DNA from: Tilletia caries
Lineage: Eukaryota > Basidiomycota > Exobasidiomycetes > Tilletiales > Tilletiaceae
Direction: 5' to 3'
Assembly (NCBI GenBank): GCA_032718865.1
Contig: JALUTQ010000020.1
Span: 682,001 to 746,000 of the forward strand
Length of the DNA stretch: 64,000 bases
Shown here: positions 6,210 to 57,854 of the stretch, piece after piece
How the letters are laid out: the number at the start of each line of letters is the position of its first letter
Position numbering within the stretch: position 1 is the first letter of the stretch
The notes under the pieces: model-generated
What the model saw: only the letters and a program-made list of their open reading frames with translations
Told to the model about the DNA's origin: nothing
Databases searched by the model: none
Position numbers and translations under genes: made by a program

Positions 6210-6370
6210 CCACTCTTACATCTGTAATGCGACTTACTGACTTATTGTCAGACTTAAAGTCTGATAAAGGACTAAATGTGACATAAAGTCTGACATAAGT
6301 CCTGACTTAAGTCATTCTGAAGACTTACAGTCTGACTTTAGTCGGACTAAGCGACTTATTGACGACTTAT
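6210..6370. repeat. Subterminal GACTT/AAGTC cluster of hAT 1, split from its terminus by nested insertions
   Basis: The sequence has repeated GACTTA, AAGTCTGA and GACTTAAGTC words that match those at 4525-4890 and 10140-10320. It starts right after the kinase stop, so in the original element this was the start of the right subterminal region. Confidence 0.75.
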
Positions 6371-6879: not shown

Positions 6880-7170
6880 CCCCGTCTGCTACCCTCCGTC
6901 TGCTTCTCCCCGTCTGCTACCCTCTCCTTCTGCTCCCCCCCTTCTCCTTCTGCTCCACCCCCTGTCTGCTTCCTCCCCCGTGATCCCTCCCCGTCTGCGG
7001 TCCTTCTCCGTCTGCTGCTCTCCCTCCCCGTCTGCTGCCCTCCTCCCCCGTCTGATACCCTCTCCCGTCTGCTGCCCTACCCCAACCCCGTCTGCTGCCA
7101 ACCCCGTCTGCTGCCCTCCCTCCCCGTCTGCTGCCTTCCCCGTCTGTCTCTCTTCTGCTCTCCTCTCTGT
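6880..7170. repeat. CCCCGTCTGCTGCC-like minisatellite
   Basis: This pyrimidine-rich block has irregular copies of CCCCGTCTGCTGCC and CTTCTCCGTCTGCT inside the nested TIR element. It is followed by a short (TATG)n tract at about 7285-7325. Apparent ORFs here are low-complexity artefacts. Confidence 0.7.
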
Positions 7171-7490
7171 CTGCGCTTCTTTTCTCTCCTCTCGTTCAGA
7201 ACAGTCTCATAGGGCACATCACACAGCGACAATTCGACGTTCCGACGACATATCTTCCATCACTAACCCCTCTCGCTGCTCTGTTAGATATATGTATGTT
7301 ATGTATGTCGTGTATGTATGTATGTTAGACACTGGAATGGATATGGTCTTTTGCTCCCTTACTTTCGCGGTTTGCGGCCGGTACAGACCCAGCCTGATGC
7401 TACCCTCGTTTTACCCTCGTTTTGCCCGTCTGACCAAAGTGGGTAAATCCGCACAAAACACAACATCTGCAGGGGTAAAACGAGGGTAGC

Positions 7491-7726
7491 TGTGCGAACA
7501 CAATGGTTCGTAAGTAGGAAGCTGCGTATGCTAGAAGATCATCGATGTATCAGAAGGCTAAGTACAAAGGGAAGTGAGGAAGAGAAAAGAGGTGACTGGA
7601 AGAATGGCGTGGGAAATGTGGAGGATGGAAGTGTTGCTATGCGGGAGTGTGGGAAAGGGAGAGAGGAAGACAATGATAATAGATAAGATAACTGGCCATG
7701 TGGCTTCGCCACGTGTTGCCAGCACA
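7491..7726 (-). repeat. 3' LTR of element A
   Basis: This is a copy of 9747-9982. Read on the minus strand it begins TGTGCTGGCAACACGTGG and contains TTATCTTATC. The LTR of element B shares these features, so A and B are related. Confidence 0.88.
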
Positions 7727-8204
7727 TCCCCACCCAAAAAGAGACAACTGTCCTCAGTTGTGTATGGGCACTGGGCAGGAAGCACTGCAACGGGCACGGA
7801 GTGAGAATGCAAGGGGGCGGGGTGCGCGTGAAGTCGTAGGGTGTGGAAGGGACTGGGATGTGGTAGCTGTGTCGAAATGGATGGAGTCAAGCTGTGAAAG
7901 GGCGGCTGGGGTAGAATGGATCATAGATGTAGTCGGAGTGAGGAAAGGAACAGGCCGAGGGAAAAGCGAAGTGGAAACGGATACAGGGGCGATGATGATT
8001 GATGGGAACCCGAACCGCCGTCCACTAGCTGATCGTCACTAGCTGATCGTCACTAGCTGATCGTGACAGGAGGAGTACCCGCCAGCGGCCAGAGTCCATC
8101 GGCACGTCGTGATGTTGAGGAGGAGAGGCGCTGCCGGCTCGATGCTGGATCGTAAAGACGCAAAGCGCAACAGAGCGCGATGGCCGATGATCGATCCAGA
8201 GGTC

Positions 8205-9203
8205 TCAATGCCCATCCGGATTCAGCGCACTCACAACGAGCTCAGTGGCTCGCTTCGCGCCGAGGACGGCAATCACTTGACTGGGATCGGCATAAACTGC
8301 GCCTAGAACGTCGGCGTCCTCCTCCGACACGCTGGACATTCGAGCTTGAAGGGCATTCACCGCGAACGAATCCGAAGCTGGCAGCGTACCCGTTGATAAG
8401 GCCTCGTACAAGCTCTGGATCGCCAGGACGCGCTGGGTGGCCGGGGGCGAGTGGCTGAGAAGGCGCAAACGGAGACGTTGCTTTTCAGCAGGTTCTTCTG
8501 CGCCGTACTTGAGCGTCAGCAGGTACCGGGCGGCTTCGAGTCGGAGATCGTCACTGAGCGATGGGGCAAGAATGATCTTGCTCAACGACTCCGCGGTCTC
8601 ATCTGGTGAAGCCAAGGGAGTCCCGGGCCGTGTGACAGCTGCAAGAATCTGTTGAGCCAAAGGCGTGACCTCTGTCCCGCGTCCGCTGGCTTCCGCTACA
8701 CTCTCTGCGAATCGAGGCAGGCCGAGCAAAACCTGTGCAGCCTCCGCAGAGACGAGTTGGGCCGCTTCTTGTTCCGCCTGGTTGAGGGAAAGCAGAGGGG
8801 AGAGAGCATCCTCGTCGGAGAGAGCGTGACTGAAGAGAGCAATGCAGGCGGAGATCAGAGGCATGATGGCCTGCTCGTCGGCAGCTTGGGGATCCGCTCG
8901 GGCCGGAGAGACGAGAGACTCGATGGTAGCGCGGACCGCCTCCGAGCTGAAGGGGAAACAAGCCCCCAAGGCTGCGATGACCATGAGTGATGCCGTTCGG
9001 AGCTCACTTATGTCGTCCTGTGATGGGACGAAGGCGGCGCATCGAAAGGCGACAGGCAAGATGATTGCGTCAGCGTCAGCGTCACCGTCGAGCTGGGTGA
9101 GCCGGAGGCCGGGATCGCGTCGTCGGGGGAAGTCGGCATCGTCATTGGCATTGCCGTCGCCGATGGTGAAGCTCGCACGTTTCGGGGGCGTCGCGTCTGT
9201 CAT
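8205..9203 (-). CDS. Host-like helical protein ORF captured in LTR element A
   Basis: An intronless ORF on the sense strand of element A. I start it at the ATG at 9203 (MTDATPPKR); an in-frame ATG at 9329 adds an Arg/Ser-rich stretch that looks like untranslated sequence. The product is about 332 residues and acidic in the N-terminal 50. After that it is strongly alpha-helical, with repeated Leu/Ala-rich helix pairs suggestive of an ARM/HEAT-like fold. It has no gag, CCHC, protease or RT motif. Codon use is GC-rich like the host genes. It is most simply a processed piece of a host gene picked up by the retroelement; the parent gene is not recognised. Confidence 0.55.
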   Translation of the reverse strand: MTDATPPKRASFTIGDGNANDDADFPRRRDPGLRLTQLDGDADADAIILPVAFRCAAFVPSQDDISELRTASLMVIAALGACFPFSSEAVRATIESLVSPARADPQAADEQAIMPLISACIALFSHALSDEDALSPLLSLNQAEQEAAQLVSAEAAQVLLGLPRFAESVAEASGRGTEVTPLAQQILAAVTRPGTPLASPDETAESLSKIILAPSLSDDLRLEAARYLLTLKYGAEEPAEKQRLRLRLLSHSPPATQRVLAIQSLYEALSTGTLPASDSFAVNALQARMSSVSEEDADVLGAVYADPSQVIAVLGAKRATELVVSALNPDGH

Positions 9204-9746
9204 CGTTGAGGAGTGCCGGGAGGAAAGACAGGACCGGCTGCGAGAAGGTGGTGGTGGTCGAGAACGTCTTGACGGTGCTGTGCTGTGCTGCCGAAACTCG
9301 AGAAAGCAGAGGAGATGCCTCGACTCCACTTGCCTACTGGGATGGCCCGATGGCCGGCACAGAACCCGGAACAGAAAACAGGCCAGCTGTGGAGAAAGGA
9401 AGAAAGAAGAAGGCCGTCGAGGGAGGTCTTGAGGAAGAAGTGAAAGTGAAGAAAGTTGGGTGGTAATGTGTGAGAGCTGAGAAGGAGAAAAAAGCAGAGA
9501 GATCGAGAACGAGAGAGATCGATGTGCCGATCCGGAGGCGCACTGGAGCTGTTGAGCTCGCGAGGCCGTCCGAGAGGGTCCCGAAACCAGAGGCGCTTTG
9601 GAGCTGTTGAGCTCAACGAGGCCAGTCTGGAGAAGGAGCCGGACACGAGACCGAGGCGCGCTGAGTCGTTAGACTGTGGGGCCATCGGCGTGGGTCCCAC
9701 TGGACTTGGTCGGTGCAAGTCAGTGGTCAAAACCCTCTCATCACCA

Positions 9747-9982
9747 TGTGCGAACACAATGGTTCGTAAGTAGGAAGCTGCGTATGCTAGAAGATCATCG
9801 ATGTATCAGAAGGCTAAGTACAAAGGGAAGTGAGGAAGAGAAAAGAGGTGACTGGAAGAATGGCGTGGGAAATGTGGAGGATGGAAGTGTTGCTATGCGG
9901 GAGTGTGGGAAAGGAAGAGAGGAAGACAATGATAATAGATAAGATAACTGGCCATGTGGCTTCGCCACGTGTTGCCAGCACA
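9747..9982 (-). repeat. 5' LTR of element A
   Basis: This matches 7491-7726 apart from one G-to-A difference in the purine run. The primer-binding site CTCTCATCACCA (plus strand, 9735-9746) is directly adjacent. Confidence 0.88.
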
Positions 9983-10139
9983 GTAGCCCAAGGTGGCGAA
10001 CGGAGCGAACAGTAGGTAATCCGAGGGCAATCCGGGGGTGGAATCTACCCCCAAATCACCCACGTTTTACCCCTTTTCCAATTTTCGTGAGAATGATTAT
10101 CGATGGCCATTTGCAGATGACAGATTCATGTTTGGCCGT

Positions 10140-10320
10140 GGTAGGTCAGTTTTAAAGGTGATTTTCGGTCGAGACTTAGTAGACTTTTTGGACTTTAAGT
10201 CTGCGCCGACCAAAAAAAAGTCTAAGTCTAAGTCACATTATAAGTCACAAAGTCAAAGTCACAAAAAAGTCTAGACTTTGACTTTAAGTCAGGTGGTAAG
10301 TCTAAAAGTCACATAGTCAC
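10140..10320. repeat. Right subterminal GACTT/AAGTC cluster of hAT 1
   Basis: The block has AAGTCTAAGTC, GACTTTAAGTC and AAGTCACA words running up to the terminal GCCGACCACTG. It mirrors 4525-4890. Confidence 0.8.
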
Positions 10321-10522
10321 GCCGACCACTGCTCGAGCGAGCCGGGAGGGTGGGAAATCCCTCGGCAGCGCGCTCGATGGCACCGACGTCCGCTACGTAC
10401 ATGGAATAGCAAAGAGAATGGTAGCGGACAGGAGAAAAGAGAATCGGTGCGAAGGCCACCCGCGTCGAGCGAAAGAACGTGAAGCAGAGGAACGAGCAAA
10501 GAGGGAAAAGAAAAAGGGCGGG

Positions 10523-41222: not shown

Positions 41223-42806
41223 TCAAGCACGTTTGAGGTGTATCCCCGCAAAGCTACGGATGCCCGGGGGTGGGAGATCATCGAGACGGTGCTGGAGATG
41301 GTCGCCAAGATTGGACTCCGTGAATCGAGACTGTTGATGTTGCTTAACCCTGAGCCCGAACTCCTTCAGTCCCTTCTCGACCTCTGTTATCCAGGATTGG
41401 TCAGATGCTATATAGGCTTCGTTAATGGTCCAAACCCGAGGGAGGTTGGGAGGAGCGGATTCACCAGCCTGTTTGAATTTGTTCCACAGCTTTGTAGCAT
41501 CGTCGAAGGAGGCGGAGCTGGCAGCCAATTGAGGTTGAAGAGGTAGACCATGGGCCATGCACGCCAGCCAGAAGATACGCTCTGTCGACCAATGTTCCGC
41601 AAGATTTGCTTTACCACAACTAAAAGCGTTGAGGAATTCCTTGGACAGCTTGACAGAGGCATGCCTTGAAATAATGTGATTTGTTTTTCGGGTTGAAGCC
41701 GCGAAGCGCAGTGTGTCCCGAATCAGAGGCTTGAGTGGATGGGCCATTTCTTTGGGCAACTCGTGAAATTTGGCGACGAACGATGAGAACCGGAAGGGCG
41801 GTAACGTTCCGGGAGATTTTGCATGGTTGATTAGGTGTATGCGCAGATAGAGAGCTAGCCATTGGGTGTGAATGTCGACCGTCCAGCTGTCATCGATCGC
41901 TTTGTCGAGTATGTCGGCATCTGCACTGGCATTGTTCCAATAAGTCGATTCATCGTCATCCAATAACGTCTGAATGATCCAATTTTGAAGGAGCAAGGCT
42001 CCATAGTGTTCGGCGGCCCAGGCTTGTGCCTTGATAGAAGCAAAAAGCTGCGTGGAGATATTGCATAAATCCACTGTGTGGTGTTCATCACCCTCGCTAG
42101 CTGCCATGAGGGTTGCGTACCGCCGGGTGGAATCGGCGTACTCCCCATTTCAAGCTCCAGCTTCATTGCCTTTCATTCTCTTGAACAAGTGACATGCGCC
42201 GTTAAGCAGGTGCTTAGTGGTGCTCTTAAGCATGATGGGCATTCCCGCCCTGTTCCTCGCGACGAATAGAACGAAGAAATGTGGCGCCTCGAAGGCCAAA
42301 CCGGAATCTGAACGCGCAAGAAGACGCAGAGAATCGGCATGGTTGCCTTCGTACTGCTTGTACAGCTCGGGTCCTGCATCCTTGAGATCATCAAACAGAT
42401 CGCGGGCATTCGTAAGATGTGGTCGGGCCTCGTCGAGCTTACCGGCCTTTACAAGCCGACTTCCGACCAAACGAAACGTATCGGCTGCGGCCGCGAGTGG
42501 AAACCAATTTGGTTTAGGTTGTTTGGGTTGCTCAGGTTGCTCGGGTTGCTCGGGTTGTTTGGGTTGCTTGATTTGCTTGGGTTGTTCGGGTTGTTTGGGT
42601 TGTTTGGGTTGCTTGGAACTCCGTTCCTGTTCCACGAATTGCCGCAATGCCATGAAGGCAAGATTGGGCTTTGGTAAGAATACGGCTTTTGGTTTTGCGG
42701 CTGTTGGTTTTTCGGGATGAACGCCGGGGAACCATTCTGCCTCGATGTCGTTGTACAATTTGAGAACCCAGTCCTGGATGTCGCCGACGGTTTTGATGTC
42801 CCCGCT
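41223..42806 (-). pseudogene. 3' half of a host TPR-like membrane protein gene split by hAT 2
   Basis: Its reading frame continues exactly from the 5' half at 56119-57854. The codons AGC GGG G at the insertion point are shared through the 8-bp TSD. It encodes GDIQDWVLKLYNDIEAEWFPG, then a Gln-Pro-Lys low-complexity run (about 42500-42625). A helical region resembling tetratricopeptide repeats follows (VKAGKLDEARPHLTNARDLF), then a long helical domain ending GIHLKRA at 41223. An in-frame TGA at 42150-42152 (between NEAGA and NGEYADSTRRY) interrupts the reading independently of the transposon. The function is unknown. The two lesions make it a pseudogene in this assembly. Confidence 0.7.
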
Positions 42807-42834
42807 CAGTGCTCGGCACATGTCTTATAAGATC

Positions 42835-43020
42835 TTATTTGGAGGCCAAGTCATGTGTCATGTCATATATGACTACGTGCCAAAATCGCAAAGTCATGTT
42901 TCATGTCATATGACCACTCATATATGATCATATATGACACATAAATTTTGATCATAAAAAACTCCAATTTTTAAGATCATATATGATCATATAAGATCAT
43001 ATAAGATCTTCTCGCTCATA
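42835..43020. repeat. Left subterminal TCATATGA-type array of hAT 2
   Basis: Irregular, mostly palindromic AT-rich words (GTCATATATGAC, GATCATATATGATC, ATAAGATCATAT) lie between the TIR and the transposase promoter. The same words occupy the right arm. Confidence 0.8.
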
Positions 43021-43159
43021 TTTTCGTCACCCCTCGGTTAAAAATCTCACACGCACACCCCTTCTGTCTGCGGCGCAGTCTTTGCCATTTATCCCTTCAT
43101 TCGACTTCATCGCCCAACCTCATCCGCTCTCCAGCCCTCAACGCCAGTCGCCAATCTAC

Positions 43160-46100
43160 ATGACCGAATCCGTGGCGGTCCAGTCTCCCGCAGTAATCAG
43201 GGCGGCGCTGGAGAGCGAGCTGTTGCTGTGCGACGCCCTCGCCGAGTTCAAGACGCAGGACAGCTTCAAGATCCACCACTTCGGTGACAAGATCGACAAC
43301 ATCCCCAATCCCACTCCGGAGCTCTCTATATCCGCGCGCAAGATAGCCAATCTGTTCAATGAACCAGACACGGAAGGCGACGCGTTCAATGAGCCTGTGA
43401 GTCGTCAGATCCTCTCTCTCCTCGGTGTTTTTGGACCTCTTCTCTACGTTTTGCTAATCATCGCTCTATACCTCATTGGTTCCTTCACTTCAGCCTCCTT
43501 TCCGATTTCCCGAGTCACAAGAGCGGTTCGAGCAGCTGAAATCGACCACGGTATTCGACGACTACCTTCAGTTTTCCCAGAGTCAGTCTGTCAAGAGCTC
43601 CCAGCTTTCTCAGCTCCATGTTCCACCGGCGCCAAACCAAGAGAACCAGGCCATTCGGGAACAGCTGCTCCGACCCCCTGTCCTCCCCTCATCCGCGCAA
43701 GCCCGTTCGTCCAGCCTTCAGCTTCCCACCGGCAGCCGACAAGGGTCTCGGGAGCCCAGTCCGGTCCGAAAGTCGTCGCGACCTGCTGCTCCTAAGGTCT
43801 TTAAGGGATACGTCATGGGCAGCGGCGAAACGTCCGGATCCGCGAAGGAATATGCTCGCGATGCAGGCGGCAGCGACGGTGTTACCAGCAGCCACGAAGA
43901 CGAGAACGATGAGGATCTTCCTTCCGCTTCGAAGCTATCGAGAAAGGTGCGGCATCTTTCTGCATCCAACCCTTCTCCACGACGTTCTCCATCGCCTGGT
44001 CCCAGCAAGAAGAAGGCACGAGCGAACCCCGCTCCCAGACGCTCTGCGCCTCCGACGGCAGAGGAGCGCAAGTTGCTTGCTCAAGCTAAGAAAGCGCCAA
44101 CGCCACCGACGGAACCGCGAAGGCCGTTGAACAATCCGCCTCGCAAGATGACACGGGCGACATCTCAAGAAGCTGCGTTGCCTCCCTCGCCGGCAGAACG
44201 AGCTCGAGCAGCACAACGACAAGCTCCGGTTAGCGTCGGCGATGGGTTCGAAGACTGCGAAGGCGAGAACGAAGGCCCCTCGTTCTTGGACATCGTAGCA
44301 GCGCAGCAGAAGACGACGGGCCGCGAGCTCGCAAGGGTTCCGACGAACACAACGAACGCCCTTGCCGTTTCCAAGCAGGATGGAGCCCTTACTCAGTCAG
44401 CACGTGAGGCCAAGCTGGGCGCTCCCATGTACGAGGGCGACGTCCCTCTCTCTCGTGCTGCTAAGGCAAGTCTTCTCGGCTGGACGGTGGCCGAAGGCTA
44501 CGAGGGATTCAAGTACATCAGCACGTTCAAGAAGGGCGACAAGATCAAAGAGAGCTGGTTGTGTCTCAAGTGTGGCGAACCCAAGACGGCGTCGATGCAA
44601 GGCAAACCAACCAATCTCAAGCTACATCTCGGATCTTGCAACGGTCCCAAAACCGACGCTGCCGCCGCACTTATCCGACAAGCCGAAGAAGGCGCGGAGA
44701 AGCGATCGTCTATGCCGGAAACATCGACTCTCGCTGGCTCATATCGCGGAACCAGCGTCCGTGGCTGGCTGAACGCACATCAAGCTCTGGATATCGACTT
44801 GACCCGAAGGCTCGCCCTCGTCTGCGTGATTCGGAATGCTCTCCCCTTCACCCTGCTCAGCTCCGTCTCGATGAAGAAGCTGATCCGATCTCTTGATCAT
44901 CGTGCTACCACGTCCTTCAAGAGCGCCCGGCAGGTACAGCGCGACCTCAAGAAATTCAACTCTCACCTGGCGTCCAATCTGATCTCTGAGCTCCAGGGCA
45001 TGGACACCCTCATGGCTCTACAACACGATGGATGGACCAACAAAGGCTTTCAGCATTCCTTCATGGGAATAATCGGCTCTTATGTCGACGCCAAGTGGGA
45101 ATATCACGAGCGCCTCCTTTCGTTCGACGTCGTTCAAGAAAAGCACAGTGGCGCTACCTTCGCAGGACATCTTGTCCGTACGATCAAGAAGTTGAAGTTG
45201 GACGACAAGTGGTACGGGGCGGTTGTCAGCGACTCGGCGGGAACAAACACACGCATGTTGACGCTGATGGAGCACGACTTGGAGGAGGAACACATGCAGC
45301 AGCGTGATCCGTCGGCTCATCAGGACGATCTCTCCGTGCAGAAGATGCTGAAGGCGTCTTGTTCGGCGTTTCCTAAGGCCAGCCTACGGAACACGGGTAC
45401 ATGGACGGCCAACGACTATCGGATCCTCTGCCTCAATCACCACATCAACCTCGCGGTTCGGGACGGATTTGCAAAGTTCGACATCAAAGTCAAAACGAAG
45501 ACACAGCGGAAGGTTTTGGACATCCGTCCCAAGCCTAGAATCTCCGTCGTGGACGAGAACGGAAAAGAGATCATCCTCTCGGACTCGGACGACGTGGAGC
45601 CGGAAGAAGATGAGGAGGACGACGCCGCCGCCGAGGACGGTGAGGAGGAAGAGGAGGATGGAGACGATGTTATCTCCCCTCTGAACCTCGCCGAGGACGA
45701 AGACGACGAAGAGGCCCTTCCCGAAATGGCTCCTGGCGAAGAAGACATTGGCTCAGACGACGACGGAGGACCGGAGGCAAGTGGAGAGACCCGTCCTTCC
45801 GGTAACCAGAGCAAGCCTGTGAACGGAGTCGCCAAGCTGGCCGCTTTCACCACATGGATCCACCGCAGCAGTCAGCGTCAAGTAGCGTTCAGGCGTCGAA
45901 TGCAGCAGGAATACCACCACCAACCCTTGCTTGCCGAAGCTCCGTTCCCGTCGAAGCCGAACAAGACCAGATGGAATTCCCACTTTGCCATGATTCAAAG
46001 TGCTCTCGACATTCGAGCGGCCATCGACTCGCATTGTCGAGCGCACATCGGGGTCCGGGGCGAGGTGCTGGGGGACTACCTGCTCACCGACACGCAGTGG

Positions 46101-47051
46101 CAGCAGCTCAAGCTCTTGGAGCCGATTCTAGGGCTGGCGGCTTCGATTACGAAGAAGATGGAGAAGACGGAGGGAACACTCTACGCGGTTCTCGACTACC
46201 ACGCCAGTCTTCGGGACGAAATTGCGGCACATGTTCGTCGGGCGGCAGCAAATAACGCACTTGATGAGGAGACCAGAGGCGAAATCACGAAGTTCCTCAA
46301 CGCGATGGAGAACAAGCTGCGGAAATACAGAAACATCGCCCTCCGCAATCGCGTTATATTGGCGGCCACCCTCCTTCACCCCAACAACCGAAAGCTGTTC
46401 AAGATCTCCTATCCAACTTACCCAGGAAGGGCGGAGACCGCCCTGCGCGAATTGCTGGACGAGCTTGTGGATTCCTCTCAGTCTCCCGCGGCTTCTCCGG
46501 TTCTCCGAGTAGCGCAACTCGCTTCGTCCAGCACGGAACCCCCTTCGCCTTGCTCCGCAGCGCGCGCTCGGAGGGAAGAGGCCGCGGACGAATCAAATGC
46601 AGCGCTGGAAGATAGAGATCGGGACGACGAAGTAACCCGCTACCTCGATCCAAAGAATAGCCCATGGCGAACGTCGGACCGTACTCCATACAAGTGGTGG
46701 CGAGACAACGAAGCCGTGTTCCCAACCATTTCCAAGCTCGCTCGGATCATCTTGGCGATTCCCGGCTCGTCCTCCGCGGTCGAGCGTGTGTTCTCACAGG
46801 CGGCTCTCGTCAGCACAAACAGGCGAGGGAGCCTCTCAGCTGCCAGTATCTCAAGACTTGTCACCACAAGGCACTGGTTGGTCACTGGCGCCGACGAGTT
46901 CGCTGGGCTCCCCGAGCAGGCCCTCAAGGTGGCTCACAGCCACCTGATCCTTCCCGATCCAGACGACACGAAGAGAAAAGCGAACAACAATAGCGGCGCC
47001 CAAAAGAAGAAGACGAACAAGGACCGCCGCCGTGAACTGCGCACCGCATGA
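43160..47051 (+). CDS. hAT-family transposase, full length
   Basis: The protein should cut the TIRs and reinsert the element. Exon 1 is 43160-43396 and exon 2 is 43494-47051 (GTGAGT donor, CTTCAG acceptor), giving about 1,264 residues without an internal stop. The N-terminal 430 residues are disordered Ser/Pro/Arg-rich. A BED-type zinc finger lies at about 434-462 (CLKCGEP...HLGSC). The RNase H-like catalytic core shows LQHDGWT (first Asp, about 590), VVSDSAGTN (second Asp, about 660) and LNHHINLAV. A long acidic insert follows (about 700-770; EEDEEDDAAAEDGEEEEEDGD), then KTRWNSHF. The hAT dimerisation domain is at about 1140-1210 (YKWWRDNEAVFPTISKLA, SSSAVERVFSQA, RRGSLSAASI). The C-terminal basic tail may be a nuclear signal. 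It appears intact and could be active, and could also serve transposase-less relatives. Confidence 0.9.
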
Positions 47052-47331
47052 GCTACTCAGCTGTCTGATCAACATCAGCCAGATGCTGTACAGCTTTATC
47101 GATATCTCCTCTCCGAAATGAACGATTCCTTCTCTTGACACTCCAGCGCCGGTTCTGAGTCCTCCAGGGTAGTAGAAAGAAGACAACTCGCATTGAATCT
47201 GACTTGCAAGTTGCATAAAGAGAGACGAGAGTTGAGACACACGGACAAGGTAGTGTGTGAAAGCAAAGATAAAGATGTATTGAAGAGAAGAGTGAAGACT
47301 CAAAATGTGAATAGCTAGCTGCGAGCGCGCG

Positions 47332-48911
47332 TCAAGAACGCGAGTAGAGAGGATCCTTGAGGAACATAGCCAGATGCGGACGTCGGTTTGGAATGAGTAT
47401 GAGCATCTCGCTGATCATGGCGGCTGCAACGGCGTCCAAGTCTTGAAGTCTGTGGTCGGCATCTGACTTGAAGGGGCCCCAAGTCGTCGGCACTTCCCAT
47501 TCCGTAGGCGTAGGATACTTTCCCTCCGGGTAGACCGGACCTCCTGGATGCCCGGTGAACTTGAGGAGATCTCGCAGATAACCTTCATCGTCGCTACACG
47601 CGAAAAGGGGGCGTCCGGAGTACATTTCCGCAATAATGCACCCTACCGACCAAACGTCGTTCTGGAATGTGGGCCGGCGGGAACCCAGCATGCATTCCGG
47701 CGCTGTGTAGCCGATCGTCCCCACTGTCGAGCTATCTTGATCCGCGCCAACTGTCCGAGCTAAACCAAAGTCGAGAACCTTGAGACAGGACTCTCGAGTG
47801 ATCATGATGTTGGCAGGCTTCAAGTCTAGGTGCACCAATCCGTGGCGGTGTATGTGGCCGACTGCCGAGATCAGCTGCTTTGCCAGCTGCCGTGCCTTGC
47901 GTGGACGAAGCTCCCGCCCTTCTTGGTCGTCGATCAAATCCTGCAACGTCCGGTCTTATAATGGCATGATGATGTCGATACTCTTCGTGTTGTACACGAC
48001 GTCCAGTAGCTCGGCAATGCCTTCATGTCGCTGCACGAGCGACAGAGATTCGATTTCGAAAAGCAGTCGCTGTGGAGGTTGACCATCGTAGTGTTGCCGT
48101 TTCCTGGCGCGAGTATGGCCGGTAAGGAGATCAACAACCTTGGCGACGGCGCCGTAGCTGCCCCGTCCGACAATGGATGTATTCCTCGCCCTGACGTAGC
48201 GTCCCGAAGAAGTCCAGACCGGTGGCGCCTGCCATGTAGCATCATCGGGAGCCGAAACGGTCTTCGCGACTCTGGCAGCGCGCGTAAGTTCTGCTTTGAC
48301 CTTCAGACATGGATCTGATGGTGATTGGAGTAAAGGTAGGCAGAACGTTTAGCGGATTAGACCGACGGATGAACTCAAAGCCAATGTAGCCTACTCACCC
48401 GAGGAGCGCACAATTCCACTGCCTTCCCGCGTTGCTACTCCTTTGGTCCGTGCTTCCGAGCCACTGGTGGCGATGGCATCCCGTGCTGCGCAGATAATGA
48501 AGAAGAAGATGATCGCTTGGTGAGCAAGGGAGGCAACAGAGTGGCACTGACGTGTGTGCATACAGGCGTCTTCATGCTGCTGCAATGGGGGAATAACAGT
48601 CGGCGCCGCCGGCAGAGCGTGTGAAGCTGCGAAAGAACGTTTGTGTGTAACGCTTGTTCAGTAAGCGTAAGCTGGGAAAGAAGATGGTAGCATGCTGCTG
48701 TCGACTCACGATGCGGAGGAGCTGCAGCCTGAGCAGGATATGCGCTGTAAAGGACAGGACGTGGACGTTTCGCGAGGAGTCCTATGGGCGTGTCGTCCTC
48801 AACATCGGCATGTTGCTCTCGACCGCGCTTCCCGGTCTGCGTGGTCGTTGTCGGGACAGCCGTCAAGGTGGCTTTTCCGTCGACTACTGATCGCCGGTGA
48901 GGTGGACCCAT
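47332..48911 (-). pseudogene. Ser/Thr protein kinase carried by hAT 2, one nonsense codon
   Basis: The first exon starts at ATG 48911 (MGPPHRRSVVDGK) with a basic KRGREQ segment and ends before GTGAGTCG. At least two further exons follow (one ends VRSSG before GTGAGTAGG near 48400; the next starts near 48315). The kinase domain has GRGSYGAVAKV (Gly loop), ARKRQ in the place of the ATP-binding lysine, FEIESLSLV (alpha-C Glu), HLDLKPANIM (HLD replaces HRD), LDFGLART, GYTAPEC and WSVGCIIAEM. The CMGC-like tail ends KDPLYSRS at 47332. An in-frame TAA (47956-47958) sits in the hinge between IIMPL and DRTLQDL. All other residues are preserved, so the lesion looks recent. It is convergent with the transposase, 280 bp apart. 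Confidence 0.75.
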
Positions 48912-48984
48912 GAGGAACGGGAAGATCGGGTGATGTGGGGCCTGAGTGTGAACCGTCTGCCTCAGCCGTGACCCGGAGTTTTAA

Positions 48985-49076
48985 AGCCTAATTTCCGAGC
49001 CGTACCCGCCGAAGCAAGAGCCCCGATTCGAAAATACAATGTGAATTATCATATTTATATGACCCTGAGGAATATG
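48985..49076. repeat. Right subterminal region of hAT 2 (inner part) with TSD of element C
   Basis: The TATCATATTTATATGAC words are of the same type as those at 55930-56105. The segment ends in ATATG (49072-49076), which is repeated at 55930-55934 after element C. Confidence 0.7.
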
Positions 49077-49365
49077 TGTGCTAGACGGGTCAGGCCTTTC
49101 TTTCTTTCTTTTTCTCTACTGCTCTCGCTTCCGGAGATAGTGGCTCCACGTGGCAACTCCACGTGGACTCACTATCTTATCTCCCTTTCTCTCTTATCTT
49201 TCTTGCTCGCTCCCCTCACGTCGCTACCTTTCCCTTTGTCCTCTCTCGGCCGAGTGCCTTCCCTCTCTCGTGCTCGTCACCTTCTCGCTGCTCCCTGCAC
49301 TTGTACTTACTTGCTCCGGACATGGAATCACAACTCTGAAGCACTTGTATAGCTAGTCTATTACA
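49077..49365 (+). repeat. 5' LTR of element C
   Basis: It appears identical to 55641-55929. It contains the direct repeat CCACGTGGCAACTCCACGTGG near 49147, which also forms a CACGTGG hairpin. Confidence 0.92.
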
Positions 49366-49452
49366 TGGTGATGAGAGTATAGATTCCAAGTTTACACTGA
49401 ACGACAGAAGGAACACACCCACCCCCCAGCCATCTCCCCACTCACATTCGCC

Positions 49453-50846
49453 ATGCCAAAAGGATCCGGCAAGTCTAAGGAAGAGCCGACCACCTCTCGG
49501 TCCGGTTCTCCTTTGTCCGACCCACCCGCCATCACCCTCGAAGATGTTGCCTCGACTCTGGCTTCGTTCATGACCAGGATGGACTCCCGGATGGACGCTG
49601 TGGACTACAAGCTGGCCACGTTGGCCACCCCAGCTCAACCGCCCATCGCTGCGGCTGCGGTTGCTCCCGACACCTCCACCAACGTCGCACCCGACGTGGC
49701 CACCAAATCCCCCTCTGACGACGCTCGATCGGTCTCGTCCCCTACCGAGCAGGCAGCCGCACGACTCGCCGCGCAACATCCGGCGTTGTGGTCGCGTCTG
49801 CCTTCCGATTCCCGAAGTGTCGTCACTTCCGCGCTTGGTCGCGCGGGATACACCCTCACCGATCTCGACTCGCGCCCTCCGACAGCGGCCCCTCCCGTGT
49901 CGCGTCCGCTCAAGTGCCAGCGGGAGCTCATTGGCTCCTACGACGGCGAGCCCACCCGCTTGGAGCGGTTCCTCAGTCGGGTTGCCGATATGGCTCGCTC
50001 CAACTCCGATCCCGCGTGGGAACCTGCGGTCGTGGTGGCGATTCCCCAGGCGCTGGAAGGGATCGCGGCTCGCTGGCATGCAGGCCTGCCAACGACGACT
50101 GTGCGCGGCCTCCGCACGGTGGAGGATTACGCGCGTCTGATGCGTCGCGCCTTTGCTGTAAACCGGGCGCAGCTTCGTCAGGACGCGCATGATCGCCGGT
50201 GGCAAGAGTCTCAGGAGTCTGGAATGGCTTACCTGTTTGACAAGGTCCAGCTCTTGCGTTACGCGTTCGGCGATTCGTACACGGAGAGCGTTCTGGTGCA
50301 AGAGGTGGCCGACAAGTTGCCGCCCTCCATGTATGCGTACATTCGCTTGCCGGAGGAAGGTGCCGTCCTCGATGATCTTCAGGACGCCATCATCCGTTGG
50401 GAGCCAGTCTGGAGGAAGGTGCACAACATTCCTCTCCTCGACTCGAGCTCGATGTCGTCGGACAAGGTCGTCAAAACCCCGTCAGCTCCGGTTTCTGCCC
50501 CGATCCGGCAGGCTCCGACGTCCGCGCCCCCCTCCTCGTCCTCCCCGTGCGGTGCATCACACCGTTCCTCCCGCATCGGTGACGGCCCCGGGCCCGCAGA
50601 CCTCCTTGCCGGCGACATACGATCCCGCTCGGATCGTGCCGGCCGCGAATGGGCTGCCGCGCATGTACCGCCGGCCCAACTCCAATAAGGTGTTGCGGCT
50701 GGGTTGGAACTGCAATCGCTGTGGGGGGGAGAGCATTTTTGACTTTGAGCACGAACATCTGCTCCAAGCCGGCCAAATCAACACACTCACGGTCGCCGAC
50801 TATCCGGAGATCGATGAGGCTGATCTTGGCCTGGCCCCCTTTTTTT
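49453..50846 (+). CDS. gag polyprotein of element C
   Basis: The start ATG 49453 (MPKGSGKSKEEPTT) lies 76 bp after the PBS. A disordered leader is followed by a Retrotrans_gag-type helical domain (about residues 155-310; LIGSYDGEPTRLERFLSRV and LFDKVQLLRYAFGDSYTESV). Frame 1 stops at 50688. The natural continuation is in frame 2 after a C6 run near 50525, giving NCNRCGG...FEHEH, a possible zinc-binding knuckle, and ending LGLAPFF at a T7 run and TGA (50846). This change of frame is either an indel in the C run or a sequencing error. Gag would package the element RNA into particles. Confidence 0.8.
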
Positions 50847-53800
50847 GAGCGTCCGCAACGACGGTAAACTAGTGGCGGGCACCGACGTCGAACGGGCCCG
50901 CCCGCCTCCTCACCCTCCCGATGCGCCCGTCGTACATGCTGCGGTCGTGGAGAGCTTGGAAGTGACGGAGACGGAGTCTGATTCAGTCTCATTTGTCCGT
51001 GACGACGTTAAACTATCGACCAATACTCACTGGTCCATCCCACATCCTTCCTCTAACCAGACTGACGCAGGGCCCTATGCCAGCCCTGTCGAAGCTGCGG
51101 TGAGGCTGGATCTTGGAAGGGAGGGAAGCGCCCCTCCGCTGCCAAGCAGCAAGGATGGTCAGCACGACTGTCCTGACGAGCTCGCGCCGGAGACAGCTCG
51201 TCGTAGCCCCTGGACTCACACTGAGACCAGATTCAAGAGCGGCAGGGAGAGGGCTACGTCCCCCTCTGGTCCAAGACGGGACCTCCCTGCCGGGTACCAT
51301 GTAGGCATGACCATGTGTGGAGATGACAGGGAGATTGGACCACTCCCTGATCTGAGACCCCATGGGCACCTTTCTAGGGGAGTACAGTCTCCCCTTTCTG
51401 CTGAGTTGGAACGGCCTAATAAGCACGTTTCTCCATTTACAGATTTAGAATGCACAGTCAGAGATGAAGCTGTGAACGCACCTGAGGATGGGGAGGGACA
51501 ACCGTCCACAAGTGGAAACGCGCCCATACCGGCGCTTGCTTTACGCATCGAACCTCTGCCGCAGTTCTTCACTGCGCGGACGTTCCCTGTGAACCGAGAG
51601 AATAGACCATTGCGTCAGAAGACGCGACGCATTGGAAAGATCGTGACAATTGCTCCTGGACCGGAGGTGGGCACGGGGACAGCATACAGACATCATGTGC
51701 CACTTACCATGCACATTCGCATTAATGACGCCTCTGGTAACCCCCTGTCCTCCCTCCTGGACACTGGCTCATCTCTCTCCATAATCGATCGCCAGCTGCT
51801 CGAGACGTTGGGAGGCACGGTCCAAGGCCAACCCCTGCCTATCCACGGCATCGGCTCCAAGTCGTCCTTGGGGTGGAGTACGATGACGTTCTTCGTCGCC
51901 GTCGATGATGCCGTCGGCCAGTCCTTGTGCATGGAGTGCACCGTCGACTTCCATGTGCTCGAGGCGTTCGCGCCCGGACTGTGTTTGGGGCAGGATTTCA
52001 TTAGCACACATGGAATCGCCATCCACTCTCGTCGTGGCACTGCCGTGCTGGAGCACAATGGGAATCCACTCACGTTTCCAGTGCGTGAGCACATGCCGGG
52101 GCCCTATGCCCGTCAAGCCGAGCTTTGCACGACGCGCGACATCGTTATTCCCGCTCGTTCCCATGCCTGGGTCCCCGTCGACACCGCCCCATTGGCTCCC
52201 GGTCTCGACTACACCGCGTTTCCTCGACTGATGTCCAACGCCGCGGAGACCGTGCGCTTGGCGGGGCCACTGGCTGTGATCGACTCCCGGACGGCGCATG
52301 TCCTCCTGACCAATGTCGGTACCCTCTCCACCTCTCTTTCTCGCCGTACTCCGGTCGCCGACGCTGTGGTCGCCCAACTTGGTGAGGTGGGGGTGCATGC
52401 GGCGCACGTCTTCGACTTGCCTGCGGCCATGCCGGGAGAGGCGTATCATGCGGCCGGCTCGTCCTTGTCTTTCTCTGTCGAGGTCGACATCGACCCGCTG
52501 GACGTGTGTGAATCGGTCGATGGGTCCGATCTCCCGTCGCCGACGGAGGAGGTGTCCGTTGCGATGGTCGACGGTGTGTTCAAAGTCGGGCTTGACGCTG
52601 AGGGTCGTCCGCATCCGGACATTGTTGCGGTACTGGGTCGTCATTCGGCAGCGTTTGCTCTTGACGGTCGGCCTGGTCGAGTTGTCGGCCATGAGATGTC
52701 CATTGATCTTGACGACGATCGCAACGTTCACCCCGAGGCCCCGCGCCGCGCGAGTCCGGAGAAGCAGCGCGCCATGGATGCAACGATTGATCAGCTGTTG
52801 GAGTGGGAGGTGATCGAGCCCAGCTCCAGTTCGGTCTCCTTCCCCGTCTTGATGGTCCGCCAGGGCGAGAAGTGGCGCTTTTGCGTGGATTATCGAAAGC
52901 TGAATGCGCATACGGTGGCGGACGCGTATCCTCTTCCGACCACTGATGCCATCTTCAACTCGTTGGCAGGGAAGCGAGTGTACAGTTCACTGGACGCCCT
53001 GCGGGGGTATCATCAGCTCGGTGTGCGGGAAAGCGACCGGTGGAAGACGGCGTTCACGTGTCACCGTGGCCTTTTTCCAATACCGCACCGTGCCCTTCGG
53101 CTTGCGCAATGCGCCCGCGGTGTTCCAGCGGCTGATGGACTCGCTGCTTGGGGATCTGCGATGGAAGGTGGCTGTGGTTTACATTGACGATGTCGTTGTG
53201 GCGACGAACACCATGGACGAGCATGTACACGCGTTAGAGACCTTGCTGGCTCGCGCGGAAGACGTCGGTCTTCGCTTCAGCCAAGCGAAGTGCACCTTCG
53301 GCGTGCCGTCCCTGACGCTACTCGGGAGGAAGGTGTCCGGCGCGGGGGGGTGGCGGTCTGGTCCGATCGTGCTCGTGCTGTGTTGGATTTGGCTCGACCA
53401 AAGACGTTGCGGCAACTGTACCATGCCATGGGGCTCTTTGGGTACTACCGCTCGTTCATTCCTCGATTTGCAACCGTTGCGGCCCCATTGACCGCCTTGA
53501 CACGGGGATGGCGGTATGAGCGGTGTGGGGATCGCACTCGGCTCGTCGCGACCGATGGGTCCCCTGCCTCTGCGGATAGGGTCGAGATTCCGTGGGGTGA
53601 CGAGCAGGACGCCGCGTTCGAGACGTTGAAGAGGGCGATTGCTTCTCCGCCGGTCCTCGCGCATCCGGATCCCGCTCGGCCTTATGTGCTTTACGTGGAC
53701 GCGAGTAAGGATGGTTTTTGGTGCGGTATTGCACCAGGTCTTTGAGGTGGATGATCCGGCACCGGCTGTGTCGCTTTCCGCTGCGGCGATTCCCGTGCAG

Positions 53801-55648
53801 CAGTCCTCGTTGCTTCCATCCACGGTCGCACGCGAGCGTTGGCATGCCTGGCTATGTCGAGACCGCCACTTTGGCCCAATCCTTCGCGCTCTGGATGCTG
53901 GTGTTGAGGAGCCTGAGTGGGTGATGCAGGATGGTCTCCTCATTCGCCGCCAAGATGGGCTGCTCGCGCTACCCGAAGGCGGTGTTCCGGACATCCTTCG
54001 CACCGTCCATGATCAACGCGGTCACTTCGGATTCACCAAGACGTATCTGGCTGTTCGGCGACATTTCTGGCGTCCGGCGCTGTCAGTTGCTGTTCGAGCC
54101 TGGGTTAAGCATTGCCCACCTTGCGTTGCAACGAAGTTGGCACGCCGGACCGGACGGTTAGATGTCGAGGATGACGCCTCCCTCCCGTTCCAGTCCATCT
54201 CGGTGGACTTATTGCTGGGTTTCCCGCGGTCGAGGGCTGGTAATGATGCCGTCCTTGTGGTGTTGGACCTGTTCTCGCGCATGATCCTGCTCGAGCCGTG
54301 CGCCGCGTCGGTCACGGCTGAGGGTGTCGCCGCTATCCTCAGCGACCGCGTGCTCCGTTACGGATGGCGACCGAGTCGCTTGATCCCGGACTCGGAAGCG
54401 CGGTTGTCCGGCGTCGTTATGTCTGCCTTAGCGACGTCGCTGGGAGCTGTGTTGTCGCCGTCGGTCCCTCATCACCACCAAGCCAACCCGGTCGAACGGT
54501 CTATCCAGACCGTCAAGCGCGTCCTGCAGACGTTGTGCTTGGACTCCCGTGCTCATTGGGACAAGCGCGCCGTACCTGCCGCGGAGTTGGCGATGAATTC
54601 CACCCCGTCCGTGTCCACCGGCGTTTGTCCGTTCGACCTGGTCTTCGTTGCCCATCCGGATGTGGTACACGCCGTCTTTGATGCGCAAGAGCATGAGGGT
54701 GTCGGATCATTTGTTGAGCGGTTGACGGCGGCGGGAGCGCGGTTGGAGGATGCTCGTGCCTCGCTGGCGGAAGCTCGTCGCGCTCAAAAAGCGCGCTATG
54801 ATGCGGTCCGGGCGCCGTTGCCCTCGTATGCTGTAGGGGATGCCGTCTTTGTGCGTTTGCCGGATCGACCGATTCCGGGTTCCCAGGAGAATAAGCTGGC
54901 GCCGCAGAAGATGGGTCCTTTCCGGATCAGTGCGGTCCTTAGTGACCACCGGGTGCGGTTGGAGCTGCCGGCGGACCTGAGGATTGGAGACACGTTTGCG
55001 GTCAGTCAGTTGGATGCTGTCCCTGGGGATGAGGATCCGTACGTCACTCACCGTGCGGGTTCGCCCGTCGAGGACGCTGATCGGGTTGCGCCTGCTTCTC
55101 CTTTCGCACCGTCTTCTCGTGCTTCCTCTCCGGTTCCTCGTCCCCCGCGGGCTCGGCGCACTCCGGGTGTGTTGCGAGAGTATGACGTGTCGGCGCGCGT
55201 CCATGCTATGTCGTCCTCGTTGTACGATGCTTTGCGTGGTCCGCTCCATCGCGCTCGGCGTCTCGAGGTTGATGGCCGGACGGTGATCTTGACGGAGCGA
55301 CCTGTCGCCTTCTTGTCCCGGTTGACCATGCCATCGGAGCAAAAGCTTGTCGCGCCTGAGCTGGAGCTGTCGTGCCTTGCGTGGGCTTTTGGGCGATTCC
55401 TCCACTTGTTGGAGGGGGCCGACGTAACCGTGGTGACGGATCACGCTCCGTTGGGGGCGATGCTCACGAGTTCGGCCGGGGCGCGCTATGGACCGGTGAT
55501 TTCGCGTTGCCGGGCGCAGCTGATGCCGCATCTCGCGCATCTGCGCTTCGTTCATCGGCCAGGCACCACACACACCAATGCTGATGCGTTGTCCAGGCTG
55601 GTCGTTCGTCCCGAGACGGACGTTCTGCTCGACGCGGGGATGTGCTAG
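50845..55648 (+). CDS. pol polyprotein of element C (protease, RT, integrase, split RNase H), frameshifted
   Basis: It opens in the -1 frame relative to the end of gag. A disordered stretch is followed by an aspartic protease (LLDTGSSLSIIDRQLL, about 51753). RT has WRFCVDYRKLNAHT, then YIDDVVV. Frame changes fall at a T5 run (about 53072), a G7 run (about 53344) and a T5 run (about 53715), each consistent with one extra base. RNase H begins normally (YVDASKDGFGAVLHQ) but breaks off. The sequence passes straight to H2C2 (GHFG...CPPC), the integrase core (SVDLLLGF, LIPDSEAR, NPVERSIQ) and an SH3-like tail (QKMGPFRISAV). After a Ser/Pro linker, the missing RNase H part appears (VAFLSRLTMPSEQ, PELELSC, TDHAPL, NADALSRL), ending at 55648 inside the LTR. 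No chromodomain was seen. Confidence 0.85.
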
Positions 55649-55929
55649 ACGGGTCAGGCCTTTCTTTCTTTCTTTTTCTCTACTGCTCTCGCTTCCGGAG
55701 ATAGTGGCTCCACGTGGCAACTCCACGTGGACTCACTATCTTATCTCCCTTTCTCTCTTATCTTTCTTGCTCGCTCCCCTCACGTCGCTACCTTTCCCTT
55801 TGTCCTCTCTCGGCCGAGTGCCTTCCCTCTCTCGTGCTCGTCACCTTCTCGCTGCTCCCTGCACTTGTACTTACTTGCTCCGGACATGGAATCACAACTC
55901 TGAAGCACTTGTATAGCTAGTCTATTACA
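55641..55929 (+). repeat. 3' LTR of element C
   Basis: It appears identical to 49077-49365. It is followed by the TSD ATATG at 55930-55934. Confidence 0.92.
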
Positions 55930-56105
55930 ATATGACTCAAAAAGCGTGTCATATTAGGTCTTATAGTGTCTTATTTGGTATTATCAAGTCATATGTCATA
56001 TAAATATGACGGCCAATTTTTGCCTCGAAAATCGTGTCATGTCATATGACCAAATATGATCATATTTGGTCATGTCATATATATGACTCATAAATATGGC
56101 TTTTT
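55930..56105. repeat. Right subterminal TCATATGA-type array of hAT 2 (outer part)
   Basis: Dense GTCATATGAC, AAATATGATCATATTT and CATATATATGAC words run up to TGCCGAGCACTG. They mirror 42835-43020. Confidence 0.8.
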
Positions 56106-56118
56106 TTGCCGAGCACTG

Positions 56119-57854
56119 ACCCCGCTTTCCCCTTCCACCTCGGATCTCCAGGTGACGATCCTCGTGATGGGGACCTTGTCCACCCACGCCGAGTCGTGTA
56201 CCGTATCCTGAATTTTGTGATCGGCAATAATAGCATGACGGTAAAGGGTCGTCGCAGTCGTGAATAGACTGACTATCATAGGCGTGGGCTGGGCTAAAAA
56301 CCAATAAGAGTGCGGGAGACGTTTTTTGAGAAATTTCAGGTGGGCGAATATGGTCGCAGCGGAGAGGTCCCCGTTCTTCCCGAGTGGGATTGGAACATCG
56401 AATCTGCTTTTCAAGATCGTGTCGAGGTAAAAATCCGAGGCCTCGAACAGTTTGACTTGCTCCGCATCCGGCCAGACTTCAACAGCCCGTATCTGGTGAC
56501 CAGCCGCGATCTCCAAGAAGCGCAGTGCTTCTTCCGTCTTCTTGGGTGCGTAGTCGAACAATAAGAAGTATAATTCTGCGACTTGGGTCAGGACGACCAC
56601 GTAGTTGACGGATACGTTCGTGAGGCTCGCACTTGGAACGTCCACCTTGATCGTCCGCCACAGTACCTGAAAGTTGCGGATCGTCTCTGGGATGTCGCTG
56701 TTGAACATGGTCTGTAGAGTTTTGGGCCTCTTTTCCCATCGCTTCTGACGCCTGTTGATGTCTTCGGTAAGGTCGAACGTCCTGAGCATCTCTTCCTTGA
56801 GCGTTTCTAGTTTCGTTCCCAAAGCATCGATGATGTTCTGCATTTGGCCGTGGTTGTATGTGTGGCCTTCCAAACGGGGTTTATCTTCGATCTTGGAGTA
56901 CTCTCCTCTCTTCATCGCCTTGGTCACGTTTGGATTCATTGCTGTTGTGGTAGCGCCATCTTGCACCTGGCTGCCGGCCGCATCATCCGTCTTTTTCGAG
57001 TTGTTCTCAATTGTCTCCTCGTTCTGGTTGAGGAGCATGAGTGAGAGTGAATCAGCACCTGTCAAGCAGGGATGTGACAGAACTATACACGAAACTCACC
57101 ATCTGAACCGTCTCGCCATAGACCCACGCGAGGATCCATGCGCACCATTCACGTGACCATGGCAAGTAAGGCCATAACCAGCTCAGTACAACCACTGCTG
57201 TTGTGAGGCCGAAGTGCACCCAGTACATGTGATCGAGCTGGGGTATCCGGTAGTTCATCCACCGTGGCTGCAGGGACGCGTCCTGCGGCTCCCTGGCGGT
57301 CGGGTCGAACAGACTCAATCCGGCATAGGTGTAGAGTATAGCTGAGAAGTCCATGTTTATACCGGCGATCACCATGACCACGATGACAGAGATACCTGGC
57401 CCGAGGTTGGTATTAAGTGCGTAGAACCGACGGAGTGCGCGGACAAGGGCGTAGGGACTTCGACGGACTCCGGCGAAAAGTTTTTTAAGACCGGCATAAA
57501 AAGTGGGAGCAGGATGCGTCTTGTCCTTGGCGGCTTCTGCTTGGAATGCCCCTGAGGCGCACGCACGCACAAAGGACCATGGACAGGCAGGGTCAGCGCT
57601 TCAGCACACTGATCACTGAACACCAGTGTCTGGTAGGAAGAGTTGGAGATGGTATGCTCACACTTCAAGTAGAGGTAAGGAGTGGGAAATCTCAACCGGA
57701 GTGAAATCTGCAGAGCACTGATACAACCGGCCCAGTCGAGCTGGCCGGTCTCGTTGGGTGCACCGCTGTCGCTGTTTCCAAGGTTAAGGGGGTCGTCTCC
57801 TGCCTCGTCTACGAGGCTGGTGTTGTCATCTTGTAGTACAGGCTGGCCGCTCAT
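56119..57854 (-). pseudogene. 5' half of a host TPR-like membrane protein gene split by hAT 2
   Basis: Exon 1 starts at ATG 57854 (MSGQPVLQDDNTSLVDEAGDD) and ends near TPYLYLK. Exon 2 (about 57570-57100) has membrane segments (ISVIVVMVIAGINMDFSAILY and LTTAVVVLSWLWPYL). Exon 3 starts near 57060 (DSLSLMLLNQNEETIENN) and runs through a helical region (LETLKEEMLRTFDLTEDINRR) to EVEGESG at the transposon border. Its frame is the same as that of 42806-41223. I do not recognise the family; the topology suggests a membrane-anchored helical-repeat protein. The gene is divergent from glutathione reductase. Confidence 0.7.

What the first reader, a model, noticed from the sequence alone, without database searches (positions are those of the whole stretch)
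42807..56118. A hAT transposon that carries a protein-kinase gene beside its transposase
Matching termini (CAGTGCTCGGCA inverted) and an 8-bp TSD with one mismatch enclose one complete hAT transposase and one Ser/Thr kinase gene, convergent and 280 bp apart, with subterminal arrays at both outer edges. Simple hAT elements encode only a transposase. I know of no described hAT lineage with a kinase as a second gene. A kinase could phosphorylate the transposase (which has a long acidic, Ser-rich insert) or host cell-cycle factors, to time excision; that role is speculation.
Basis: partly seen in the sequence, partly recalled or inferred. Interest (0 to 1): 0.92.

Follow-up and report, generated by a model that had tools for sequence, protein, structure and literature searches.

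The report
Jumping gene carrying its own kinase
In a bunt-fungus genome, a large group of hAT jumping genes carries, next to the enzyme that moves them, a second gene for a protein kinase related to cell-cycle kinases, which points to transposons that may control their own movement or their host by phosphorylation.

Summary
Confirmed and extended. Window 42807-56118 is a hAT element (exact 12-bp TIRs, TSD 7/8) with a transposase and a convergent Ser/Thr-kinase gene. This copy's kinase has an internal stop; open copies exist. In the same genome (Tilletia, inferred), 8 of 9 copies of the three nearest groups carry a kinase in the same place (the ninth is a fragment), five with exact 8-bp TSDs, across about 30% DNA divergence. 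Genome-wide, 36 of 74 hAT places have a kinase within 5 kb (2.4 expected), 33 tail-to-tail. Linked kinases form one clade (one unlinked kinase inside) and lack the HRD arginine (22 of 22); most other catalytic residues are kept. Between groups the kinase looks as constrained as the transposase. The closest database relatives of both genes are from Tilletia; a T. indica pair has consecutive gene numbers. Kinases were exchanged between hAT lineages. My searches found no described hAT with a protein kinase; rust IS3EU elements carry an alpha-kinase. That the kinase belongs to the element is well supported; its substrate is inferred.

The parts
42799..42806 (.). left target-site duplication TCCCCGCT
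42807..42818 (+). left TIR CAGTGCTCGGCA
42807..43056 (.). left subterminal array of TCATAT/ATATGA (13 in 250 bases)
43160..43396 (+). transposase exon 1 (ATG to a GTGAGT donor; inferred from sequence and from the similar start in group B copies)
   Evidence: splice sites read by eye
43494..47051 (+). transposase main exon, open to its stop codon
   Evidence: acceptor read by eye
46629..46880 (+). hAT C-terminal dimerisation domain (PF05699)
46683..46694 (+). TPYK, a CDK-consensus site kept in the main subclade's transposases (candidate phosphosite, inferred)
47052..47331 (.). 280-bp gap between the convergent genes; the equivalent gap holds the switch point of the chimeric copy on C35
47332..48348 (-). 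kinase main exon (Pkinase domain 47350-48180), with an in-frame stop at 47956-47958 in this copy
48710..48911 (-). kinase 5' exon with basic, NLS-like stretch (inferred gene model, by eye)
   Evidence: similar N-terminus in P0002
49077..55929 (+). nested Ty3/gypsy LTR retrotransposon (not part of the hAT); LTRs 49077-49364 and 55642-55929 identical, TSD ATATG
55935..56106 (.). most of the right subterminal array (13 hexamers in the last 250 bases of the hAT, LTR element left out)
56107..56118 (-). right TIR (TGCCGAGCACTG on + strand)
56119..56126 (.). right target-site duplication ACCCCGCT

Best explanation
This is a two-gene hAT lineage. Shown: the element moves as a unit (TIRs, TSDs) that holds a transposase and, tail-to-tail behind it, a CDK-derived Ser/Thr protein kinase; the kinase has been kept under purifying selection over deep divergence and is part of the element. 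Inferred: the kinase is made together with the transposase, enters the nucleus, is active without activation-loop phosphorylation (it is a non-RD kinase), and raises the element's own success by phosphorylating the transposase, most likely at CDK-type S/T-P sites such as the [ST]-P-[YL]-[KR] at the start of the dimerisation domain, so tying assembly or timing of transposition to the kinase. The substrate step is the least certain.
For: Kinase inside elements with TIRs and TSDs. 36 of 74 hAT dimer-domain places have a Pkinase match within 5 kb, 2.4 expected, 33 convergent (150 of the 154 kinase matches that one search counted). Among 70 places ranked by likeness to this transposase, a kinase lies near 33 of the best 36 and 5 of the other 34 (with 9 kinase places added). 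One kinase clade, 92/86. The 24 kinase-linked transposases, 11 Tilletia database rows and 2 unjudged fragments form one side of a 100/99 branch, apart from 7 hATs without kinase and a Dentipellis protein. dN/dS between groups A and C is 0.096 and 0.036 for the kinase, 0.106 for the transposase. Catalytic Asp, Asn, DFG and alpha-C Glu are kept in all hAT-linked rows that have the column, while the HRD arginine is absent in 22 of 22. T. indica kinase CF319_g8041 and transposase CF319_g8042 have consecutive numbers and each a longest contig of 7,516 bases. TPYK-type site in 16 of 16 main-subclade transposases of this genome with the column.
Against: SP/TP sites are not enriched in the transposases. 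The TPYK-type site is absent from the distant kinase-bearing subclades and from 1 of 8 database rows of the main branch. Group B kinases (4 rows) have T in place of the catalytic-loop lysine, and 3 of 22 rows lack the ATP-binding lysine. The kinase frame is broken in 4 of the 8 copies of groups A-C. Synonymous sites are near or past saturation between groups (no ratio for 2 kinase pairs), so dN/dS is rough; within groups it is 0.3-1.0. Three of the 36 closest hAT places have no kinase match, nor do three more distant relatives with open frames over 1,000 aa. No expression data were available.
Confidence: 0.6

Rival explanations
1. The kinase is an integral gene but acts on the host: a CDK mimic free of normal control that pushes host cell-cycle, repair or silencing factors into a state that favours transposition.
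For: CDK-like sequence and predicted fold, PSTAIRE-like helix in some linked kinases (by eye), basic N-terminus in the kinase gene models (by eye). CDK motifs not enriched in the transposase. Kinases are exchanged between hAT lineages and still replaced by kinases, which fits a general rather than transposase-specific substrate.
Against: No host substrate is indicated by any result here.
Confidence: 0.25
2. Passive cargo: an old captured host kinase that hitch-hikes without benefit to the element.
For: Gene capture by DNA transposons is common (general knowledge). In one group kinase remnants ride in elements with no recognised transposase (window 4515-10331 and copies). Kinase frames are broken in 4 of 8 copies of groups A-C.
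Against: Low between-group dN/dS, a kinase near 33 of the 36 closest places, conserved orientation, replacement by other kinases.
Confidence: 0.07
3. The kinase is a negative regulator: it (or an inactive form) restrains its own transposase or that of rival elements.
For: Group B has T for the catalytic-loop lysine; kinase remnants persist in elements without a recognised transposase; two-kinase elements exist (C22).
Against: The two-kinase and remnant cases may be plain rearrangement or decay.
Confidence: 0.07
4. Chance: a host kinase gene that happens to lie beside a hAT.
For: None remaining.
Against: Kinase inside the TIRs of six further copies at different sites with their own TSDs; 36 against 2.4 expected.
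Confidence: 0.01

Closest known systems
hAT superfamily DNA transposons (Ac, Tam3, Hermes and fungal hATs; names recalled)
   Same: 8-bp TSD, CAGTG-type TIR, subterminal repeats, Dimer_Tnp_hAT domain
   Different: carries a second, conserved gene for a protein kinase convergent with the transposase
TET+ hAT7 elements of rust fungi (Kojima 2025, PMC12730594; passages read)
   Same: fungal hAT lineage with a second enzyme gene beside the transposase; second genes moving between transposon lineages
   Different: 7-bp TSD there, TET/JBP dioxygenase instead of a kinase, and in the three hAT7 families that the passage names that gene is upstream of the transposase in the same orientation
IS3EU elements of rust fungi with an alpha-kinase gene (same paper, passages, one section)
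   Same: DNA transposon with transposase and a kinase gene in opposite orientations
   Different: other superfamily (6-bp TSD), alpha-kinase rather than a Pkinase domain, plus a TET/JBP gene between the two
Cyclin-dependent kinases (CDK2, Pho85)
   Same: best sequence and fold matches of the kinase; a T. horrida relative is annotated 'negative regulator of the PHO system'
   Different: 24-28% identical in the fold alignments listed, HRD arginine lost, altered PSTAIRE helix in the main subclade (by eye), extra N-terminal region

Membership tests
hAT superfamily | 8-bp target-site duplication | tested here: met
   7/8 in this copy; 8/8 in C27, C40:286k, C21:46k, C4:1036k, C5:2026k
hAT superfamily | short TIR beginning CAGNG (consensus recalled) | tested here: met
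   CAGTGCTCGGCA, 12 of 12 inverted
hAT superfamily | C-terminal dimerisation domain PF05699 | tested here: met
   5.2e-16
hAT superfamily | RNase H-like catalytic DDE residues | not tested
   no structure or residue alignment to Hermes was made
hAT superfamily | N-terminal BED zinc finger | tested here: inconclusive
   no BED match at E 0.001 in the Pfam scan of the main exon; exon 1 not scanned; a Cys/His stretch is visible by eye only
CMGC/CDK protein kinases | protein kinase domain with CDKs as nearest relatives | tested here: met
   PF00069 147.6 bits in the C27 copy; best PDB sequences are CDK/cdc2; best folds are CDK2 (model mean pLDDT 68)
CMGC/CDK protein kinases | HRD arginine of the catalytic loop | tested here: not met
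   absent in 22 of 22 hAT-linked kinases with the column (27 rows) and in 12 of 12 Tilletia database rows; present in 18 of 20 other kinases of the genome
CMGC/CDK protein kinases | binding of a cyclin | not testable with these tools
   no assay
IS3EU with alpha-kinase | 6-bp TSD and alpha-kinase domain | tested here: not met
   8-bp TSDs; Pkinase, no alpha-kinase match in Pfam

The most novel reading that the evidence does not exclude
A whole clade of eukaryotic cut-and-paste transposons encodes its own regulatory protein kinase: an activation-independent CDK derivative that phosphorylates the partner transposase at a conserved site, so that transposition is timed by a kinase that the element itself owns and can swap with related elements.
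Probability: 0.35. Interest if true: 0.9.

Novelty: new variant of a known kind. Interest (0 to 1): 0.78.

Why it matters
As I understand the field, eukaryotic DNA transposons are thought to rely on host enzymes for any control by phosphorylation. A clade that has kept and exchanged its own CDK-like kinase would make transposon self-regulation by phosphorylation directly testable. It would explain a set of Tilletia kinase genes that annotation files under host kinases, and add to the TET/JBP and alpha-kinase genes of rust elements another case of fungal DNA transposons equipped with regulatory enzymes.

Tried and rejected
Host-gene coincidence: rejected. Empty site of this insertion by paralogues of the flanks: each flank matched only itself in the DNA searches, so no empty site could be shown. 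General enrichment of S/T-P sites in the transposases: not found. A hAT downstream of the one unlinked kinase in the clade (C4:999128): no transposase match in the 3 kb below it. Right end of the chimeric C35 copy: no convincing TIR or TSD in the stretch held (to C35:428600), so that end is unresolved. Literature: ten searches (open-licence PMC papers only; one search matched 603 papers and listed 15) showed no hAT with a protein-kinase gene; I judged by titles and abstract starts, and read passages of three papers only (PMC12730594, PMC6001611, PMC9172201).

Full report
What is there. The window lies in contig C15 of an unnamed 38.1-Mb genome in 40 contigs; the genus Tilletia is inferred from a 99% T. 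caries protein match. The element begins and ends with CAGTGCTCGGCA inverted and is flanked by TCCCCGCT / ACCCCGCT. Its first 250 bases and its last 250 (LTR element left out) each hold 13 TCATAT/ATATGA hexamers, against 0.04 per 250 in the middle; six other copies have 10-16 at each end. The transposase's main exon is open to its stop codon and has the hAT dimerisation domain. The kinase gene is on the other strand, 280 bp behind it. Without it the hAT is about 6.45 kb, like the other two-ended copies (6.34-6.54 kb). The kinase frame of this copy has one in-frame stop; open copies exist.

The kinase belongs to the element. DNA searches gave one copy about 97% alike (C27) with transposase and kinase, one with a 98% transposase (C35), one fragment without either end (C40:1392k), three copies about 73% alike in the transposase (group B: C34, C40:288k, C21:48k) and two about 70% (group C: C4:1040k, C5:2030k). 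C40:286k, C21:46k, C4:1036k and C5:2026k have TIRs with exact 8-bp TSDs; C27 has an exact TSD and one changed end base, C34 a slightly shortened TIR and, by my reading, a 7/8 TSD. All but the fragment have a kinase in the same place and orientation: 8 of 9, this copy included. The second gene of group B, at first an unnamed 385-aa frame, is also a kinase. The kinase frame is open in C27, C34, C40:288k and C35 and broken in this copy, C21:48k, C4 and C5; the transposase main frame is in one piece in five of the eight. C35's right end was not found.

Genome-wide test. PF05699 gives 74 places and PF00069 154, of which 150 were listed and used. 36 of the 74 hAT places have a kinase match within 5 kb; 2.4 would be expected for random points; 33 are convergent. 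Copies are not independent, so the nominal p value is too strong, but the linked cases fall into more than ten distinct transposase branches. Ranked by likeness to this transposase's C-terminus (70 places), a kinase lies near 33 of the best 36 (32 convergent) and near 5 of the other 34 (3 convergent); the three misses are C30:717383, C24:7949 and C39:578741 (which adds 9 kinase places seen). In the search with a related T. indica transposase, matches without a listed kinase also include C5:1625k, C5:2159k and C1:245k, which have open frames over 1,000 aa and 28% identity, and two fragments on C40. Where those three sit in the transposase tree was not tested.

Trees. Kinases (57 rows, 286 columns, LG+G4; C21b and L082 left out by me): 26 hAT-linked rows, 12 Tilletia database rows and one unlinked kinase (C4:999128) make one side of a branch with 92/86 support, just under the program's 95/80 mark; 18 other kinases of the genome lie outside. 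The 26 rows include one element without a recognised transposase (window 4515), one in divergent orientation (C4:981k) and both kinases of C22. Only 20 other kinases were fetched, and the root is a midpoint. Transposases (45 rows; L004 and the short C4:981k row left out): the 24 kinase-linked rows, 11 Tilletia database rows and 2 unjudged fragments are one side of a 100/99 branch, apart from 7 hATs without kinase and one Dentipellis protein; the program warns of long branches (C25c, C22 and others). Several subclades agree in both trees (C4y with C30 and C27b; C27c with C40d; C25b with C32). The disagreements are informative. Group B's transposase is sister to group A's, but its kinase groups with C40e/C3. 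The C35 copy has a group A transposase and a group B kinase, with the switch in the gap between the genes, about 160 bp after the transposase stop. C22 has two kinases, one of each main type. C36's transposase and kinase sit in different subclades. So kinases have been exchanged between hAT lineages, one kinase for another; the chimeric copy could in principle be an assembly fault.

Constraint and residues. Between groups A and C, dN/dS is 0.096 (C4) and 0.036 (C5) for the kinase and 0.106 for the transposase; between A and B 0.120 and 0.122; B against C40e and C3 0.085 and 0.077 for the kinase. Synonymous changes are near or past saturation, and two kinase pairs gave no ratio, so these are rough; within groups values are 0.3-1.0, as expected for decaying copies. 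Over the hAT-linked rows with the column, the catalytic Asp is present in 22 of 22, Asn 22 of 22, DFG 24 of 24, alpha-C Glu 22 of 22, the ATP-binding Lys 19 of 22, the catalytic-loop Lys 18 of 22 (T in the four group B rows), and the HRD Arg in 0 of 22. Among 20 other kinases the Arg is present in 18; one of the two exceptions is the unlinked kinase that falls inside the clade. Loss of this Arg defines non-RD kinases, which as a rule do not need activation-loop phosphorylation (recalled). The nearest solved kinases are CDKs by sequence (C27 copy) and fold (model of a T. caries relative, mean pLDDT 68).

Other species. The C27 kinase's best 12 database matches are all from Tilletia, at 43-99% identity (T. 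caries, indica, horrida, laevis, walkeri, controversa, maclaganii). The next best is 34% identical over 62% of the query; some lower rows reach up to 46%, but only over short stretches (120 of 1,024 listed). The transposase finds 11 Tilletia proteins and one weak Dentipellis hit (only the candidates sharing most words were scored). T. indica CF319_g8041 (kinase, 66% over 99% of the query) and CF319_g8042 (transposase, 64% over 42%) have consecutive numbers, each with a longest contig of 7,516 bases, which argues for the same linkage in a second species. For a distant linked kinase (C36) the best seven matches are Tilletia (35-92%); the rest listed reach at most 39%, over part of the query.

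How it may work. Shown: a mobile two-gene unit with a selected kinase. Inferred: nuclear entry (basic N-terminal stretch, by eye), activation-free activity, and action on the transposase. In the main subclade the residues just before the WW of the dimerisation domain read [ST]-P-[YL]-[KR], a full CDK consensus (consensus recalled), in 16 of 16 rows of this genome with the column and 7 of 8 database rows; of the 7 hATs without kinase, 6 have D-[VS]-L there and one N-P-L. This is suggestive only: the distant kinase-bearing subclades lack it, and S/T-P sites are not enriched overall.

Known relatives. Kojima 2025 (PMC12730594; passages, one section) describes rust hAT7 elements with TET/JBP genes and IS3EU elements with an alpha-kinase opposite to the transposase. 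That is the closest precedent seen. A paper on bunt genomes (PMC9172201; passages) counts hATs and does not contain the word kinase. None of the ten literature searches listed a hAT with a protein kinase; the library holds open-licence papers only, and Repbase could not be searched.

Noticed in passing
window 4515-10331: A second hAT-type element in the window (TIR CAGTGGTCGGCA / CGCCGACCACTG, TSD CTCGAGCG 8 of 8) carries kinase remnants of the same clade and no recognised transposase; its own unit is about 2.15 kb with a nested insert at about 6426-10088. Copies on C3, C30, C19 and C32; the C3:614k copy has an exact TSD CACCTGCG and the C30 copy shows an HFD (non-RD) loop.
   Followed up: partly
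window 8205-9668: Inside that nested insert a minus-strand ORF matches U3snoRNP10 (UTP10; 34.7 bits, cut-off 34.4), and DNA overlapping it recurs on C34, C33, C4, C1 and C7 at 81-96%, as if a housekeeping-gene piece had been amplified by mobile DNA.
   Followed up: no
L059 (C22:1173501-1180000) and the places near C4:1630k and C40:620k: Two kinase matches behind one transposase, of different subclades in the C22 case.
   Followed up: partly
L077 (C4:998801-1000200): A kinase of the transposon clade (HGD, non-RD) with no transposase match in the 3 kb downstream; a solo or domesticated copy is possible. A T. caries database protein (P0134, 24 member sequences), 51% like the C36 kinase, may be the same gene (not tested).
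   Followed up: partly
L016/L013 (C35:421038 onwards): Chimeric copy: group A transposase joined to a group B kinase, switch in the intergenic gap; right end not found.
   Followed up: yes
window 41223-42806 and 56119-57570: Open minus-strand frames on both sides of the insertion, the nearest kilobase of each matching only itself in the genome, suggest that the element interrupts a gene of unknown function.
   Followed up: partly
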